From IMG/VR virus record IMGVR_UViG_3300012351_000007, positions 1 through 64,000 of that record: a stretch of DNA of 64,000 nt; one strand, given 5' to 3'. The DNA is from a virus. Shown piece by piece: positions 15,782 to 56,093 of this stretch. Numbering within the stretch: position 1 is the first letter of the stretch; each line of letters opens with the position of its first letter. The notes beneath the pieces are model-generated. The model was not told where the DNA came from. It did not search any database and saw only the letters and a program-made list of their open reading frames with translations. Made by a program: the position numbers and the translations under genes.

Positions 15782-15983
15782 CGGATGCCCCCTCCGTCGG
15801 GTCTGCGGTCAGAAAGACGGGGGTGAAGTCGAAGGCGCAGGCAGCCCTGCGGAGCACTGCTTCGTCGTCCCAGTCGCCGCGCCAGGGCAGGCGCAGCAGG
15901 TATCCGACGGCTGCCGCAGTTTCCCAGCAGGCGGCCCGCGCATGTTTGCGGGCGTGGCCGAGGTGATACCGGACCATCTTCAC
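15756..15983 (-). CDS. Small hypothetical phage protein
   Basis: A 75-residue protein from GTG 15983, whose GTGA overlaps the stop of the holin-like gene. It begins VKMVRYHLGHARKHARAACW, basic and helical, and ends acidic (SDADADRRG). No known domain was seen. Coupling to the holin-like gene suggests a lysis-cassette or accessory role. Confidence 0.5.
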   Translation of the reverse strand: MKMVRYHLGHARKHARAACWETAAAVGYLLRLPWRGDWDDEAVLRRAACAFDFTPVFLTADPTEGASDADADRRG

Positions 15984-16336
15984 TCGGCCGCTACCCCACC
16001 CGGCTTGATGGTGGACACGGCGGGCGCGTACCGGATGAACACGGCGGCGAGGATGGCCAGCACGATCTCGGTGCCGGTGGTGGCACCCCAGCCGCTGACG
16101 ATGAGGGTGGCGACGGCGTTGAGGGCACTGAGGATCCCGGCGATCACCGACTTGGACCACGGCCACTCCGGTACGACCGGGACGATGTAGACGAGCACGG
16201 CGGTTGTCGCGGCGATAGCGATCTGCACCACGCCGAGGCGCGTGATGTGGCCGTTGACGGTGGCCGCCTGGATGGCGGTCAGGACAGCGGCGACGATCGC
16301 GACGATGGTCTTCCCGTACTTCTCCCAACGACTCAT
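15980..16336 (-). CDS. Holin-like membrane protein
   Basis: A 118-residue protein with three or four membrane spans (about 8-25, 34-52, 60-80, 88-103), a basic start (MSRWEKYGK) and a short polar tail. This fits phage holins, which form membrane lesions that release the endolysin. The ribosome site (CTGGGAG) and the ATG lie inside a 49-bp sequence that is repeated at 54.8 kb and borders the TnpB element. The insertion may thus have changed its leader. An amidase endolysin is encoded 3 kb away on the same strand. Confidence 0.55.
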   Translation of the reverse strand: MSRWEKYGKTIVAIVAAVLTAIQAATVNGHITRLGVVQIAIAATTAVLVYIVPVVPEWPWSKSVIAGILSALNAVATLIVSGWGATTGTEIVLAILAAVFIRYAPAVSTIKPGGVAAE

Positions 16337-16380
16337 CGGTCATCTCCCAGGAGACCCCCGGCTTTAGCCGTGGGGAGGAA
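16332..16380 (+). repeat. 49-bp hairpin sequence repeated at 54812-54860
   Basis: It matches the copy at 54.8 kb at 48 of 49 positions, in the same orientation. It contains the stem CCCCCGGCTTTAGCCGTGGGG, typical of IS605-type right ends, but stops at GAGGAA without the usual GTCAA. It overlaps the leader and start codon of the holin-like gene. Confidence 0.7.
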
Positions 16381-16428
16381 TGGGTGTTCGGCTTCAGCAG
16401 CGACGTACGGTCCTGCTAAACTTGTGTC

Positions 16429-17706
16429 GTGAGGACGGCGTACAAGTGTCGGGCGTACCCGACCCCCGAGCAGGCGGCGGTGTTGAGCCGCACGTTCGGG
16501 TGTGTGCGCCTCGTCTGGAATCGCACCCTGGCGTGGCGGCACGCCCGCTGGTACAGCGAGAAGCTGTCGACCAACGTCCCAGCGGCCAACGCCTACCTGA
16601 CCGAGTTGAAAGCCGACCCGGACCTTGCGTTCCTGCGCGAGGTGTCGTCTGTGCCGTTGCAGCAGGTGACCCGCATCCAGCAGAAGGCGTACACCAACTT
16701 CTTCACCGGCCGCGCCCGCTACCCCCGGTTCAAGTCCCGCACGGGACGGCAGTCCGCCGAGTACACCCGGTCCGGGTTCCGGTGGCGCGACGGCCGGCTG
16801 TGGCTGGCGAAGCTCGACGCCCCGCTGGCGATCGTCTGGTCGTGGCCCGAGGTGGACCCGACCAGCATCGACCCGTCCACGGTCACCGTGTCCCGCGACC
16901 TGGACGGCCGCTGGTACGTGAGCCTGGCCGCCGACGTGGACGACCCCGACCCACTGCCGGCCACCAGCCGCACTGTCGGTGTGGACCTCGGCATCACCGA
17001 CTTCGCCGTCACCTCCGACGGTGAGCGCATCGCCAACCCCCGGCACCTCGAACGCCGGGCACGGAACCTCGCCCGCTATCAACGCCGCGTGGCCCGCTGT
17101 AAGAAGGGCTCCGCGAACCGGGGCAAGGCCAAGGCGAAGGTCGCCCGCGCTCACCGGAAGGTCCGCCACGCTCGGCAGGACTTCCTGCACCGAGCCAGCA
17201 CCAACCTGGTCCGCCGGGCCGACACGATCGTGGTCGAAGACCTCAACATCGCAGGCATGGTCCGGCGGCCGAAACTGGTTCCCAACGGTGACGGCACCTA
17301 CGCGCGAAACGGGGCCGCCGCGAAAGCCGGGCTGAACAAGTCCATCCACGATGTCGGCTGGGGCGAGTTCTGCCGGCAGTTGGCGTACAAGGCTGAACGC
17401 GCCGGCCGCACCGTGGTCGTGATCGACCGGTGGTTCCCGTCGAGCAAGACCTGCTCGACGTGCGGGTACCTGCTCGCCAAGCTCTCCCTTTCGACCAGGG
17501 CATGGACATGTCCAGGTTGCCGCACCCGGCACGACCGGGACCTCAACGCGGCGAAGAACATCGTGGCGGCAGGTCTTGCCGTGGTCAGGGAGAAAGACCC
17601 TGGCTATGCCTGTGGAGGTGACGTAAGACCTGTGCGGGCAACCGCCAGGCGGACGCCGGTGAAGCAGGAAACCCAACCTGTGAAGGTTGGAATCCCCCGC
17701 CTTTAG
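16429..17706 (+). CDS. tnpB: TnpB, RNA-guided nuclease of the IS200/IS605 group
   Basis: A protein of 425 residues from GTG 16429, apparently leaderless behind a CTAAAC-type -10 region. TnpB proteins are compact RuvC-fold nucleases guided by an RNA from the element's right end; they cut donor sites and so help the element persist. All key residues are visible: Asp186 (GVDLGITDF), Glu270 (IVVEDLNIAG), a four-Cys zinc finger (Cys342, 345, 361, 364) and Asp371 (HDRDLNAAKN). The N-terminal AYKCRAYPTPEQAAVL is also typical. The length is normal, so it is probably active. It runs opposite to the surrounding phage genes. Confidence 0.92.
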   Translation: MRTAYKCRAYPTPEQAAVLSRTFGCVRLVWNRTLAWRHARWYSEKLSTNVPAANAYLTELKADPDLAFLREVSSVPLQQVTRIQQKAYTNFFTGRARYPRFKSRTGRQSAEYTRSGFRWRDGRLWLAKLDAPLAIVWSWPEVDPTSIDPSTVTVSRDLDGRWYVSLAADVDDPDPLPATSRTVGVDLGITDFAVTSDGERIANPRHLERRARNLARYQRRVARCKKGSANRGKAKAKVARAHRKVRHARQDFLHRASTNLVRRADTIVVEDLNIAGMVRRPKLVPNGDGTYARNGAAAKAGLNKSIHDVGWGEFCRQLAYKAERAGRTVVVIDRWFPSSKTCSTCGYLLAKLSLSTRAWTCPGCRTRHDRDLNAAKNIVAAGLAVVREKDPGYACGGDVRPVRATARRTPVKQETQPVKVGIPRL

Positions 17707-17744
17707 GCGTGGGGAGGAAGTCAAGTCCGTCTCCGTCTCCCGAA
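17590..17744 (+). ncRNA. Predicted guide RNA (omega RNA) of the TnpB element
   Basis: In this group the guide RNA overlaps the end of tnpB, includes the right-end hairpin and continues about 20 nt into the flank as guide. Here the conserved block (GACGTAAGACCTG, CAGGAAACCCA, GGAATCCCCCGCC, GGAGGAAGTCAA) is also preserved in the decayed copy at 45 kb. The guide would begin GTCCGTCTCCGTCTCC. The 5' limit is a guess. Confidence 0.5.
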
Positions 17745-18059
17745 CCCGATCACAGCGCCGCCTGCCAGGAGAAGCAACGCGCCGAGGGCGGACAGCCAAC
17801 GGACCGGGTGTCCGGGTCCGGTGACGGGCAGCGTGGCAGGAGATCTGGCAAGCGGGGTGAAGGTGAGGCTGGGCGTGGGCGTTCCGCTCGGTGCCGCCGA
17901 GGGCAGCGCGGACAGGCTCGGCGACGGTGCGGACGAGGCGGATGGGTGCGCCGACGGTGATCGGCTGGGGCCGTACCCGCCGCCAGCGAAGGCGGGCGAG
18001 GCCCAAGCGGCGGCCAGAACGGCACCGAGGATAAGGGGAGCGAACCGCGCCGTGCTCAT
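17721..18059 (-). CDS. Small secreted LPxTG-type surface protein
   Basis: A 112-residue protein from ATG 18059 (TGATG overlap with the upstream gene). A signal peptide covers about 1-25 (ending ASPAFA). A Ser/Pro/Ala-rich stalk runs from 31 to 76. LPVTG lies at 77-81, followed by a hydrophobic stretch (about 88-107) and the basic tail GRRRRT. These are the standard parts of a sortase substrate that becomes linked to the cell wall. Its place in a prophage lysis region suggests a lysogenic-conversion product or a phage-receptor mask; this is inference. The stop codon uses bases of the TnpB element end, so a few native C-terminal residues could be missing. Confidence 0.75.
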   Translation of the reverse strand: MSTARFAPLILGAVLAAAWASPAFAGGGYGPSRSPSAHPSASSAPSPSLSALPSAAPSGTPTPSLTFTPLARSPATLPVTGPGHPVRWLSALGALLLLAGGAVIGFGRRRRT

Positions 18060-18361
18060 CAGACCCGCTCCGGCCAGTGCCACGTGCCGCCGACCCGCGC
18101 CTCGTCGTAGTACTTGCAGCCACCGGCCGCGAGCGAGTGCAGGAAGATGCCCGTCGGATTGAGCACGGCCAGGCCGACCCGTTCGCCGCCGAGACTGTTC
18201 GGCACGCCGAGCTCGACCTCGGTGACGACCGCCGCACGGCACTCCGACTTGAACTCGCCACCCGGGGTTCCGAACGAGACGTAGTGGACGATGCGGCCGA
18301 CGCTGGGCTGCTGGTCTGGCAAAGCGGTCCTCCAGTCGAACGGCCGTACGATGCGGGTCAT
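18059..18361 (-). CDS. Conserved actinophage-type hypothetical protein (intact paralogue)
   Basis: A 100-residue beta-rich protein with HYVSFGTPGGEF, CRAAVVTEVELG and ending WHWPERV. A near-identical relative exists at 44.9-45.55 kb but is split by a TnpB remnant; this is the unbroken copy. ATG 18361 or a start near the LPDQQPSVGR segment is possible. The function is unknown. The fold pattern suggests a small beta-barrel. It sits upstream of and overlaps the LPxTG-type gene. Confidence 0.7.
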   Translation of the reverse strand: MTRIVRPFDWRTALPDQQPSVGRIVHYVSFGTPGGEFKSECRAAVVTEVELGVPNSLGGERVGLAVLNPTGIFLHSLAAGGCKYYDEARVGGTWHWPERV

Positions 18362-44896: not shown

Positions 44897-45554
44897 TCAG
44901 ACCCGCTCCGGCCAGTGCCACGTGCCGCCGTGGAGTTTGGCCTCGCGCCATCCGCAGGAGCATTGACTTCCTCCACCGCCGTGAACGGCGGGGATTCCCT
45001 CCGTGCTGCGCGTGGAACGCACAACGCCCGGGTGGGTTCCTGGTTCATCGCAGTCCGCCCGGGCAAGCCCAGGTCTTACGTCTACTCCGCAGGCGTTTTC
45101 CGTCTCCGCAAGCCCTGCGGCGACGTTTGGTGCGTCGGGCTCCAGCTTGGTTATCGCTGGAGCCCGGCCGGACGGTACCACAGTCAAGGGCACTGCTCGG
45201 GCCTTGGCGGCCCTCCCAGCGCGGGCCTTCACCCCCGCCCTCAAGGGCGGAGCACTGGCCCGCATCCCGGTAGCGCATGGGGTTGCCGTGGATCTCCGGG
45301 TTCAGGCAGTCGGGTGATTCGGGCTCCTCTGCACCCTCGTCGTACCGGCAGCCACCGGCCGCGAGCGAATGCAGGAAGATGCCCGTCGGGTTCAGTACCG
45401 CCAGGACAACGCGCTCGCCGCCGAGACTGCGCGGCACGCCAAGCTCGACCTCGGTCACGATGGCTGCGCGGCACTCTGACCTGAACTCGCCACCCGGGGT
45501 TCCGAACGAGACATAGTGCACGACGCGGCCGACCGACGGCTGCTGGTCAACCAC
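44897..45554 (-). pseudogene. Duplicated phage gene split by a TnpB-element remnant
   Basis: The first part, from GTG 45554, encodes VDQQPSVGRVVHYVSFGTPG and IFLHSLAAGGCRYDEG. The last part ends REAKLHGGTWHWPERV at 44897. These match the intact 100-residue protein at 18059-18361 in both halves. Between them lies about 286 bp of TnpB-related sequence that shifts the frame. The native gene was somewhat longer than its paralogue, with PESPDCLNPEIHGNPMRYRD in the middle. The final 33 bp of both genes are identical. Confidence 0.8.
44963..45248 (-). mobile_element. Decayed TnpB (IS605-type) element with a conserved right end
   Basis: Read on the minus strand, a GC hairpin (CGCCCTTGAGGGCG) opens the left end. 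A C-terminal TnpB remnant follows (NVAAGLAETENACGVDVRPG, compare NIVAAGLAVVREKDPGYACG in the intact copy). Then come GACGTAAGACCTG, CCAGGAACCCA, GGAATCCCCGCCG and the end GGAGGAAGTCAA. The rest of tnpB is deleted. GGAGCA flanks it on both sides (44957-44962, 45249-45254). Confidence 0.75.
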
Positions 45555-45565
45555 AGGCGCTCCGT

Positions 45566-47058
45566 TCAGTACAGGCTGATCAGCGCCTCGTCCTCGGTGT
45601 CTTCCTCTTCGAGGACCCGGTCGTCGAGCAGCAGCGGGTTGAGTAGCAGCCGGTTCAACGCCTGCGACATGGCGTCCACCCGGTCATCGTTCGCCGAGAA
45701 GGGGAAACCTGCGCATTCCTCCACAACCTCGCCGACCCACGGGGCCAGTTCGGGGGCCGGCAAGAACACGTTGCCGGCCTGGACGAACGGCGACACGGCT
45801 GCGGCACGGGCCTTCTTCGACCCGTCCGGCTCGACCGGGATCAGCCCGGCGACGGTGCGCCGCAGGGCGTTGACGACGGCTGGGCCGTTGGCCTTGTCCT
45901 CAACGAGTTTCGCGGCAGCCTGCGGCCAGCGGGCCGAAAGCGTACGGACCTTCAGGCAGGTGGTGACGAAGTCCATCCGGTCGTGCACCTGGTCAAGCAG
46001 GTACGCCTGCACGCCACGGCGGCCCCACACCTGCCCGCACACGAAGTCTGTCCCGGCAGAGTCCTTGAAGGTCATATCCCACGAGGCGATCAGCTCATCG
46101 AAACCGACCGCGATCCGGGTACCCTCGTCGCGTTCCGTCCACTGCGGTGTGTCGTAGTAGCGCCACCACTCGCGTTGGAAGATGTTGCCGGCGACCGGGT
46201 TGGGCTTGCCCTGAAACAGGGCCGTCCACGACTCGGCGCCGACTTCCTTCTTCTTCTTCTCCCAGTCGACGACGGTACGGCCGCGGGTGGACTGCATGTA
46301 CTCGCCGGGCTGCCGGCCCAGCGGGTCCGTCTCGCCCTTCTCGGGGCGGTGGTCGGCCTGGGCCGGGATGTTGATGACCCGCCAATGGTCGGGGCCGTCT
46401 TCCTTCAGCCGCCAGCCGGTCAGGTCGTCATGCGTCCAGCGCGTCTGGATGATCACCACGGCGACACCGGGGCCGAGTCGGGGGATCGCCACATCGGTGT
46501 AGAAGTCCTCGACGGTTTCCCGCCACGCCGGGGATTCGGCCGCCTCACGGTCCTTGTACGGGTCGTCGATGATCAGCAGGTCGACGGGGCGGGACGTGAG
46601 CGAGCCACGGATCCCGACGCAGTACACGCCACCCTGACGGCTGGCGATCTCCCACTCGTTCGCCGCCGCCGAGTCGGGGTTGACCGACAGGCCGAGACGG
46701 TCGCCGTGCAGCATGATGTCGTCGCGGATGAACCGGCCCCACCGGCGGGCGACGGTGTGGGCGTAGGACACGATCGCGATGCGGGTGTCCGGGTTGCGGT
46801 GCAGCACCCACTCCGGGAAACGCCGGGAGGTGCGCTGGCTTTTCCCTCCTGAGGCGCCAGGGAGATCATTAACCGTTCGCAGCGGCCCTCGGCCACGTCA
46901 ATCAGCGCCGCATCGATCAGGCCAAGGGCTGGCGTCTGGACGGTACGCGGGTCGAGCGCCCTGGCAAGGTCACCCGGTGTCGGCCACTGCGACACCCGGG
47001 GGCCAGTCGGCTCGAATAGGCGTGCCGCAGCCTCCCACGCGGACAACGTCCCGGTCAT
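45566..47058 (-). CDS. Large terminase subunit, needs a -1 frameshift at Walker A
   Basis: The gene starts at ATG 47058 (ATGA overlap with the small subunit). The first 73 codons end in MISLAPQEGK, then the frame must slip -1 at GGGAAAA (46840-46846) to continue SQRTSRRFPEW and the long C-terminal part. The full product is 497 residues, normal for the family. The resulting APQEGKS is the Walker A motif, and LLIIDDPYKD supplies Walker B. The nuclease half has Asp in ASWDMTFKDSAGTD and NDDRVDAMSQAL. It packages DNA at the portal. Without the slip the 0 frame stops at 46573. It may be programmed frameshifting, a mutation, or a homopolymer sequencing error. Confidence 0.85.
46840..46846 (-). other. 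Slippery heptamer GGGAAAA inside the terminase Walker A codons
   Basis: The 0 frame reads GAG GGA AAA GCC. Slipping back one base yields GAG GGA AAA AGC CAG, restoring the terminase. G GGA AAA fits the canonical X XXY YYZ pattern in the correct phase. No downstream pseudoknot was identified by eye. Confidence 0.5.
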
Positions 47059-54811: not shown

Positions 54812-54865
54812 CTCATCGGTCAGCTCCCAGGAGACCCCCGGCTTTAGCCGTGGGGAGGAAGTCAA
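54812..54865 (+). mobile_element. Solitary IS605-type right end
   Basis: The 49-bp sequence shared with 16332-16380, followed here by the full end GTCAA (54861-54865). It contains the CCCCCGGCTTTAGCCGTGGGG hairpin. No tnpB remains nearby. Just left is a GAGGTTG/CAACCTC inverted repeat (54780-54801). The stretch 54764-55001 otherwise shows no gene. Confidence 0.65.
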
Positions 54866-55001
54866 AAGTGCACCCACACCCCCTTCCCCCCGCGACTGTG
54901 ATCGGCGTCACAGAGAAAGATTGTCGGTGCGGGCTGATCAGGCGCCTAAGGAGTGGGGTATCCGCACGGCCGTCGTGCCGGGTGCCGCTTCGCCGGGAAG
55001 C

Positions 55002-55202
55002 TCAACGTCCCATCTGTTCGCGAATCTCGTCCCGGATCACCGCGAGCACCCTGAGCGCAGCGTCATCGGCACCCTTGCCGCACCGGCAACCCTCGACGCA
55101 GCAGGTGGGGATCGGGTCGTCCCAGTCGGCGATGTCGTGGACCACGCCAACGTGCGGGCAGGGCGGGTCGTTCGGGCACAGCCACCAGCCGGACTCGCTC
55201 AC
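55002..55202 (-). CDS. Small Cys-rich protein
   Basis: A 66-residue protein from GTG 55202 (GTGA overlap). WLCPNDPPCPHVGVVHD and TCCVEGCRCGKGAD give seven Cys, a probable zinc-binding fold. The C terminus is helical (AALRVLAVIRDEIREQM). Typical of actinophage/plasmid accessory genes. Function unknown. Confidence 0.55.
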   Translation of the reverse strand: MSESGWWLCPNDPPCPHVGVVHDIADWDDPIPTCCVEGCRCGKGADDAALRVLAVIRDEIREQMGR

Positions 55203-55391: not shown

Positions 55392-56093
55392 TCACCGTAC
55401 CTTCCGGGGTTCCCACGTTCCATTGCCTTCGTCGCCCCCCAGCCGGACCTGCTTCGCCGAGTCGGCCAGATCGCCCCAGGGGATGCGGACCGGCAGTTTG
55501 TCCGCCTCGGTGTGCGCCTTGTCGTAGTCGGCTTCGCTGAGGTACCACAGCCGGCAGCCCTTGCCGTCGTCGCGGAACCGGATGCCCTCGCCGCGCTCGA
55601 AGGTGAACGACCAGCCGATCGCCCTCGGGGCGCCGCCGTAGTCGAGGCGATCGGCGAGACGACGCAGCCGTTCCCCCAGCCAGCGCCTCACGGTTCTGCC
55701 CAGTAGAGCATGCCGACCAAGCAGTGGGTCCCCACCCTCGGCGAGGTGCGCCAGGGCCTTGTCAACGCCCGTGCGGCACGTCGTACAGTCGGGGCGGCCG
55801 TGCATCCCCCGCTCCTCCACGATCGCCGGATCGTCGGTGATCACCCATTCGGCGTGGTGCAGGATCTCCCCCAGGTTGGTCGACAGCTTCTCGCTGACCT
55901 TCCGGAGCAGCCGGCCGAGGACGGCCACGTTCACCGCCGGCGGACCGTCACCCAACTGGACGTAGATCCCGTCCGGGACCGACGCGATGCACGAGTCCCC
56001 ACCGGCGACGGACCGGTGCTCGTTGGTGGTACGGATGGAGTACACCGGCAGGGCTGCGCCGACCTCCAAGACTGCGCCGTCGTCGGGATCCAT
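55392..56093 (-). CDS. Hypothetical protein with a CxxC site
   Basis: A 233-residue protein with AAGGAG before ATG 56093. The middle contains MHGRPDCTTCRTGVDKALAH and a helical segment RRWLGERLRRLADRLDYG. The C-terminal part is alpha/beta (GWSFTFERGEGIRFRDDGKG). It ends 5 bp before the next small gene. No family is recognised. It begins downstream of a strong hairpin. Confidence 0.55.
   Translation of the reverse strand: MDPDDGAVLEVGAALPVYSIRTTNEHRSVAGGDSCIASVPDGIYVQLGDGPPAVNVAVLGRLLRKVSEKLSTNLGEILHHAEWVITDDPAIVEERGMHGRPDCTTCRTGVDKALAHLAEGGDPLLGRHALLGRTVRRWLGERLRRLADRLDYGGAPRAIGWSFTFERGEGIRFRDDGKGCRLWYLSEADYDKAHTEADKLPVRIPWGDLADSAKQVRLGGDEGNGTWEPRKVR

What the first reader, a model, noticed from the sequence alone, without database searches (positions are those of the whole stretch)
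16332..17724. Intact TnpB element inside the phage lysis region, facing against the phage genes
All TnpB catalytic and zinc residues are present and the right end and guide-RNA block look intact, but there is no tnpA. The element separates the holin-like gene from the LPxTG-type gene and supplies the latter's stop codon. A TnpB in a prophage could guide cuts against related phages or empty sites and so affect phage competition.
Basis: partly seen in the sequence, partly recalled or inferred. Interest (0 to 1): 0.6.

Follow-up and report, generated by a model that had tools for sequence, protein, structure and literature searches.

The report
TnpB element hidden between phage genes
A soil actinobacterial phage carries an intact TnpB element, a small mobile gene for an RNA-guided DNA cutter, placed backwards exactly where two phage genes meet so that neither protein is predicted to change; its relatives in bacteria use the same harmless kind of landing place far more often than chance.

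Summary
Window 16337-17724 (+) is an intact, tnpA-less IS200/IS605-type TnpB element (E1). TAM is CTCAT (16332-16336), the right end is GTCAA, and the guide starts at 17725 (GTCCGTCTCCGTCTCC). Boundaries are confirmed by a 49-bp scar of the same element in this phage (E3, 54817-54865) and by relatives. TnpB in phages is common, and no phage with E1's empty site was found, so the phage-competition idea is untested.

What is unusual is the landing site. Read on the phage-gene strand, TAM TCAT is ATGA, a stop/start overlap, and the element end TCAA is TTGA. The inferred insertion therefore leaves the LPxTG protein identical and the downstream ATG intact. Across 52 independent insertions of relatives, 40% sit in frame on a stop codon of an antisense gene, against 3% of random TYAY sites (p about 3e-17). 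Three natural empty sites (one phage, two chromosomes) confirm it. Most likely E1 is a selfish element at a harmless seam whose nuclease would re-cut the empty seam; activity is inferred. I found no description of this habit, but the literature search was limited.

The parts
16332..16336 (+). TAM CTCAT; on the minus strand its CAT is the ATG start of the 15980-16336 gene
   Evidence: Shared with scar E3 (CTCAT, 54812-54816); TAM of relatives at the same place is TCAY or TTAC
16337..17724 (+). Element E1, 1388 bp, left end to right end GTCAA
   Evidence: Boundaries by comparison with E3 and relatives
16355..16375 (+). Left-end subterminal hairpin
   Evidence: Sequence; fold; 26 bp 92% identical to the right-end hairpin
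16429..17706 (+). tnpB, 425 aa, RuvC D186/E270/D371 and four zinc cysteines intact
17608..17724 (+). reRNA (guide RNA) scaffold ending in GTCAA
   Evidence: 98.4 bits, E 2.8e-24 with model R1; covariation
17694..17714 (+). Right-end hairpin
17725..17740 (+). Predicted guide GTCCGTCTCCGTCTCC (flanking phage DNA)
   Evidence: Adjacent to the right end; the ~16-nt reRNA guide is flank-derived in ISDra2 (PMC8612924)
17721..18059 (-). LPxTG-type gene (112 aa, LPVTG, membrane segment, Arg tail); its TGA is the element's TCA
15980..16336 (-). Small membrane-type gene called holin-like; ATG kept, upstream GGGAG now supplied by the element
44963..45269 (-). Element E2, 307 bp, tnpB deleted except a C-terminal remnant; left end, reRNA scaffold and GTCAA end kept; inserted in a paralogue of the 18059-18361 gene between terminase and portal; TAM GCTAC 45270-45274
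   Evidence: 101.9 bits, E 3.3e-25 with R1; homologues L107/L108 lack it; 88.7% over 53 nt to the ShiLan element
44947..44962 (-). Predicted guide of E2, TGCTCCTGCGGATGGC
   Evidence: Adjacent to the E2 right end
54817..54865 (+). Scar E3, 49 bp: E1-type left end fused to right-end terminus through the shared GTGGGGAGGAA; TAM CTCAT 54812-54816
   Evidence: also in sister contig G001

Best explanation
E1 is an IS200/IS605-type, tnpB-only element, mobilised in the past by a TnpA supplied from elsewhere. It landed 3' of TCAT, antisense to the phage late genes, at the 4-base ATGA overlap where the LPxTG gene stops and the next gene starts. On the gene strand the cut leaves ...CGG AC|ATGAGT; the element end reads TTGAC, so the upstream gene becomes ...CGG ACT TGA (same protein, same length) and the downstream gene keeps its ATG, with a GGGAG ribosome-site-like sequence from the element. 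TnpB plus its reRNA should then recognise TCAT+GTCCGTCTCC, a site that exists only in an empty copy, cut it, and restore the element by repair from a filled copy. The filled copy has TCAA before the guide and is not a target. Shown: anatomy, boundaries, TAM and the relatives' seam habit. Inferred: the empty site of E1 itself, nuclease activity, and its retention or homing effect.
For: Intact ORF and catalytic residues; reRNA model hit with covariation; boundaries by scar E3; TAM of 23 elements (E1 and relatives) with a clear left end: TCAC 16, TCAT 6, TTAC 1. Reconstructed empty site gives an identical 112-aa LPxTG protein with an ATGA overlap, the same overlap as at 18059. Relatives: 21 of 52 independent sites sit on an in-frame antisense stop versus 62 of 2002 random TYAY sites, p 3e-17; the other two antisense frames are depleted (1 and 1 versus 428 and 141). 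Natural empty sites: Job42/Kenuha5 tape measure ...YVMPGG* with and without the element; G695 and G712 chromosomes at GTGA and ATGA overlaps, ungapped empties in sister species. Cutting of the donor joint as TnpB's role: PMC8612924.
Against: No empty-site relative of E1 itself was found. No tnpA in the record, so present mobility is unproven. No expression or cleavage data; late transcription would run antisense to tnpB and the reRNA.
Confidence: 0.75

Rival explanations
1. The TnpB is a phage weapon: during co-infection it cuts relatives that lack the element, and is kept because it helps the phage.
For: Guide and TAM match the inferred empty site by construction; intact nuclease residues; related elements occur in many mycobacteriophages.
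Against: Nearest relatives are chromosomal elements of Pseudonocardiaceae (about 70-71% DNA identity), not a phage-specific clade; the guide targets only this one seam; no relative with an empty site was found.
Confidence: 0.15
2. E1 is an inert passenger: not expressed or not active in this phage, awaiting decay.
For: No tnpA; E2 and E3 show that such elements decay in this phage; it lies antisense to the late genes.
Against: ORF and guide-RNA block are intact; codon-position differences to relatives are third-position biased, 171 versus 107 and 98.
Confidence: 0.25
3. TldR-like, nuclease-dead RNA-guided repressor domesticated by the phage.
For: TldRs are known from prophages (PMC13418256).
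Against: All three RuvC acidic residues are present; ends and guide-RNA layout are those of a transposon; the guide points at its own insertion flank.
Confidence: 0.02
4. The seam habit is only survivorship: insertion is random among TYAY sites and harmful ones are lost. (This rivals targeting as the cause of the habit, not the identity of E1.)
For: Gene-disrupting antisense frames are depleted, which selection explains.
Against: Stop-codon sites against sites with no coding signal are about 22 to 16 in relatives but 62 to 632 in the null (counts), more than removal of disrupting insertions alone would give.
Confidence: 0.5

Closest known systems
ISDra2 TnpB (Deinococcus radiodurans, IS200/IS605)
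   Same: TnpB fold and RuvC/zinc residues (8bf8, E 2e-60), reRNA from the right end, guide from the 3' flank, TAM on the 5' side
   Different: TAM is TCAT rather than TTGAT; no tnpA in the element; carried by a phage
TnpB elements of cluster F mycobacteriophages (ShiLan, Job42)
   Same: 59% protein identity, same left-end and right-end plan; Job42 also leaves the upstream protein unchanged
   Different: TAM TTTAC; different subfamily, to which E2 rather than E1 is closer
tnpB-only elements of Pseudonocardiaceae chromosomes (Lentzea and relatives)
   Same: Closest relatives: 61-63% protein identity in local alignment (62-66% in the genome search) and about 70% DNA identity; same TCAY TAM and GTCAA end; same stop-codon seam habit
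   Different: In bacterial chromosomes
IStrons
   Same: A mobile element that makes its insertions harmless to host genes (PMC4227781)
   Different: IStrons splice out as a group I intron; here the element ends simply regenerate the stop codon
PATE-like, tnpB-deleted IS605 derivatives
   Same: E2 keeps both ends without tnpB; a PATE-like sequence is reported in Halanaerobium (PMC7290912)
   Different: E2 keeps the whole guide-RNA block and a tnpB C-terminal remnant

Membership tests
IS200/IS605-type TnpB element | TnpB protein with RuvC and zinc motifs intact | tested here: met
IS200/IS605-type TnpB element | Subterminal hairpins at both ends, no target duplication | tested here: met
   Hairpins at 16355-16375 and 17694-17714; exact empty sites of relatives without duplication
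IS200/IS605-type TnpB element | Insertion 3' of a short fixed motif, which is the TAM | tested here: met
   TYAY in all 23 elements where the left end was found; the pattern itself was required in that scan, but E1, E3 and the empty sites confirm it
IS200/IS605-type TnpB element | reRNA scaffold at the right end with guide in the flank | tested here: met
   R1 hit and covariation; expression not tested
IS200/IS605-type TnpB element | Y1 transposase TnpA encoded | tested here: not met
   None in the record; isolated tnpB genes are part of the families (PMC8612924), so this does not exclude membership
IS200/IS605-type TnpB element | RNA-guided, TAM-dependent DNA cleavage | not testable with these tools
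   Needs a bench assay
TldR | RuvC active site lost | tested here: not met
   D186, E270, D371 present
Phage defence or homing endonuclease acting on related phages | Related phages carry the uncut target | tested here: inconclusive
   No phage with this seam found

The most novel reading that the evidence does not exclude
TnpB elements with TYAY TAMs and TCAA right ends are built to land invisibly. On the opposite strand both the target motif (RTRA) and the new end (TTGA) read as a stop codon in the same frame, and TCAY also reads as an ATG or GTG start, so the 4-base gene overlaps of operons act as safe harbours. The guide RNA then patrols that stop/start seam.
Probability: 0.55. Interest if true: 0.6.

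Novelty: new member of a known kind. Interest (0 to 1): 0.42.

Why it matters
As an element it is an ordinary TnpB insertion; such elements are common in phages and actinobacteria. The useful part is the insertion logic: a simple property of the two ends would explain how these elements persist in gene-dense genomes, phage genomes included, with little cost, and it predicts where to look for them and what their guides target. It also shows three insertion histories of such elements in one phage (intact, guide-RNA-only, scar), so decay can be studied in one genome.

Tried and rejected
Empty site of E1: searched by the protein of the downstream gene, LPxTG protein (78), tail and membrane proteins (22, 23, 79), and the exact TAM+guide string (37; four chance matches, 39). 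A prophage with a related head module (G174, portal 57%) lacks the tail and lysis genes.

First boundary guess for E1 (GGTCAT|CTCCC) was dropped after alignment with ShiLan and E3. First boundary guess for E2, with a 6-bp duplication TGCTCC, was dropped because homologue L107 shows GCTAC| as the junction.

A 22-base match of tnpB to 55875-55896 with a second co-linear piece looked like a relic, but protein and frame comparison shows chance similarity. A weak model hit at record position about 77.6 kb is noise. A tblastx survey gave only compositional noise. Gene starts at the left end were tested alone (12 of 23 versus 308 of 1031) and are not decisive, because in-gene frames inflate the null; the right-end test is the informative one. 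No structure prediction was run, since sequence homology settles the fold.

Full report
What is there. The window is part of an 85.7-kb virus record of an actinobacterial tailed phage with an integrase. On the plus strand, 16429-17706 encodes a 425-aa TnpB with all three RuvC acidic residues (D186, E270, D371) and four zinc cysteines. Pfam and the ISDra2 TnpB structure sequence match over nearly its whole length. The record holds no Y1 transposase. A covariance model built from 15 right ends, E1 and E2 among them (17 pairs, 12 with compensatory changes), finds the guide-RNA block at 17608-17724 with 98 bits.

Boundaries. E3 (54817-54865) is a 49-bp scar: the E1 left end, 97.7% over 44 nt, joined through the shared GTGGGGAGGAA to the right-end terminus GTCAA. 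It has other flanks but the same CTCAT before it. E2 (44963-45269, minus) is a 307-bp element with left end, complete guide-RNA block (101.9 bits) and a remnant of the tnpB C terminus, but no tnpB. It interrupts a paralogue of the 18059-18361 gene between terminase and portal; homologues L107/L108 read straight through GCTAC| at the junction. E2 is closer to the mycobacteriophage elements (88.7% over 53 nt). E2 is also in L102, a 27.6-kb contig 99.8% identical to the window over 10 kb, and E3 is in the same contig.

Landing site. With the boundaries known, the empty site reads CCAACGACTCAT|GTCCGTCTCC. On the gene strand this is CGG AGA CGG AC|ATGAGT: the LPxTG gene stops at a TGA that overlaps the next gene's ATG, the same ATGA overlap as between 18059-18361 and the LPxTG gene. 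After insertion the element end gives ACT TGA in place of ACA TGA. The 112-aa protein is identical and the downstream ATG is kept.

A general habit. I asked whether relatives do the same. Right ends of relatives were located with the covariance model, and the antisense frame that ends on the element's TGA was scored for coding character (open frame and GC at codon positions) in the flank. 21 of 52 independent sites pass, against 62 of 2002 TYAY sites in the flanks of the same loci (p 3e-17); the result is stable over four threshold sets. The two other antisense frames, which would mean interrupted genes, pass at only 1 and 1 sites against 428 and 141 in the null. Where the left end could be placed, the TAM was TCAC 16, TCAT 6, TTAC 1 (the scan required TYAY).

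Natural empty sites confirm three cases. In mycobacteriophage Job42 the tape-measure protein ends ...YVMPGG* with the element, and so it does in Kenuha5, which lacks it; GGG TAA became GGT TGA. In chromosome G695 the element sits at a GTGA overlap, and sister species have ungapped empty sites (with TTGA or GTGA); the upstream protein is unchanged. In G712 it sits at an ATGA overlap, and sister species are empty; only the last residue changes, E to D.

Mechanism. IS200/IS605 elements insert 3' of a short motif that is also the TAM of their TnpB, the reRNA ends in about 16 nt of flank, and TnpB is proposed to cut the empty donor joint so that repair restores the element (PMC8612924). For E1 this means a cut at TCAT+GTCCGTCTCC in an empty copy. 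The filled copy has TCAA before the guide and is spared. No good second target exists in the record. This is inference; no expression or cleavage was tested. Whether the seam habit comes from targeting or from loss of harmful insertions is open. Survivorship explains the depletion of interrupted genes, but the ratio of stop sites to sites without coding signal (about 22 to 16, against 62 to 632 in the null) is larger than it alone predicts.

Comparison with what is known. TnpB genes in phages are common (383 of 50,697 phage records match), as are tnpB-only elements in Pseudonocardiaceae (182 of 392 genomes have a DNA match, many of them weak; the family name is inferred from the Lentzea record used as the centre). 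E1 is a member of that known kind. It is not a TldR, since its active site is intact. Phage-competition use remains possible but untested. The nearest conceptual parallel for harmless insertion is the IStron, which splices out (PMC4227781). I found no description of the stop/start-seam property in the open library searched, but subscription papers are mostly missing there, so novelty of that point is not proven.

Limits. The coding test uses composition, not annotation; most relatives come from one bacterial family; the E1 empty site itself is reconstructed; the E-values of the covariance model are rough, and E1 and E2 were among its training sequences, so their scores are partly by construction (E3 was not in it). 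The seam hypothesis was formed on E1 and Job42 and then tested on the other sites; both of these are among the 52, but removing them would not change the result.

Noticed in passing
window 44963-45269 (-): Second element E2: guide-RNA block and both ends of a TnpB element without tnpB, of the mycobacteriophage-like subfamily, with its own predicted guide TGCTCCTGCGGATGGC. Whether E1 TnpB can use this RNA is unknown.
   Followed up: partly
window 54817-54865 (+): 49-bp scar E3 of an E1-type element near the integrase gene, apparently made by deletion between the GTGGGGAGGAA repeats of the two ends.
   Followed up: yes
window 16618-17210 (-): Rfam RF02743 (Saccharopolyspora antisense sRNA 389) matches the strand opposite tnpB with 97.6 bits; probably reflects tnpB homology, but an antisense RNA to tnpB is possible.
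   Followed up: no
window 18059-18361 and 45000-45570 (-): Two 86%-identical paralogous genes (phrog_2293-like), one in the lysis region and one between terminase and portal; the second is interrupted by E2 and loses its conserved C terminus GGTWHWPERV.
   Followed up: partly
L114 (mycobacteriophage ShiLan) 2396: In ShiLan the DNA left of the TnpB element is shorter than in Kimberlium: about 206 bp between TCAC and the TTTAC next to the right flank are missing, as if an element-adjacent deletion had used another TAM-like site.
   Followed up: partly
window 54939-55111: A 173-bp stretch present in the window is absent from the otherwise identical sister contig G001.
   Followed up: no
window 16409-16431: TGCTAAACTTGTGTCGTG just before the tnpB start resembles a -10 box with leaderless start; a similar TAAA(A/C)T stands before the start in several relatives.
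   Followed up: no
window 55875-55896 (-): 22 bases identical to tnpB in an unrelated gene, with a second co-linear 29-base piece at 86%; no protein relation found.
   Followed up: yes
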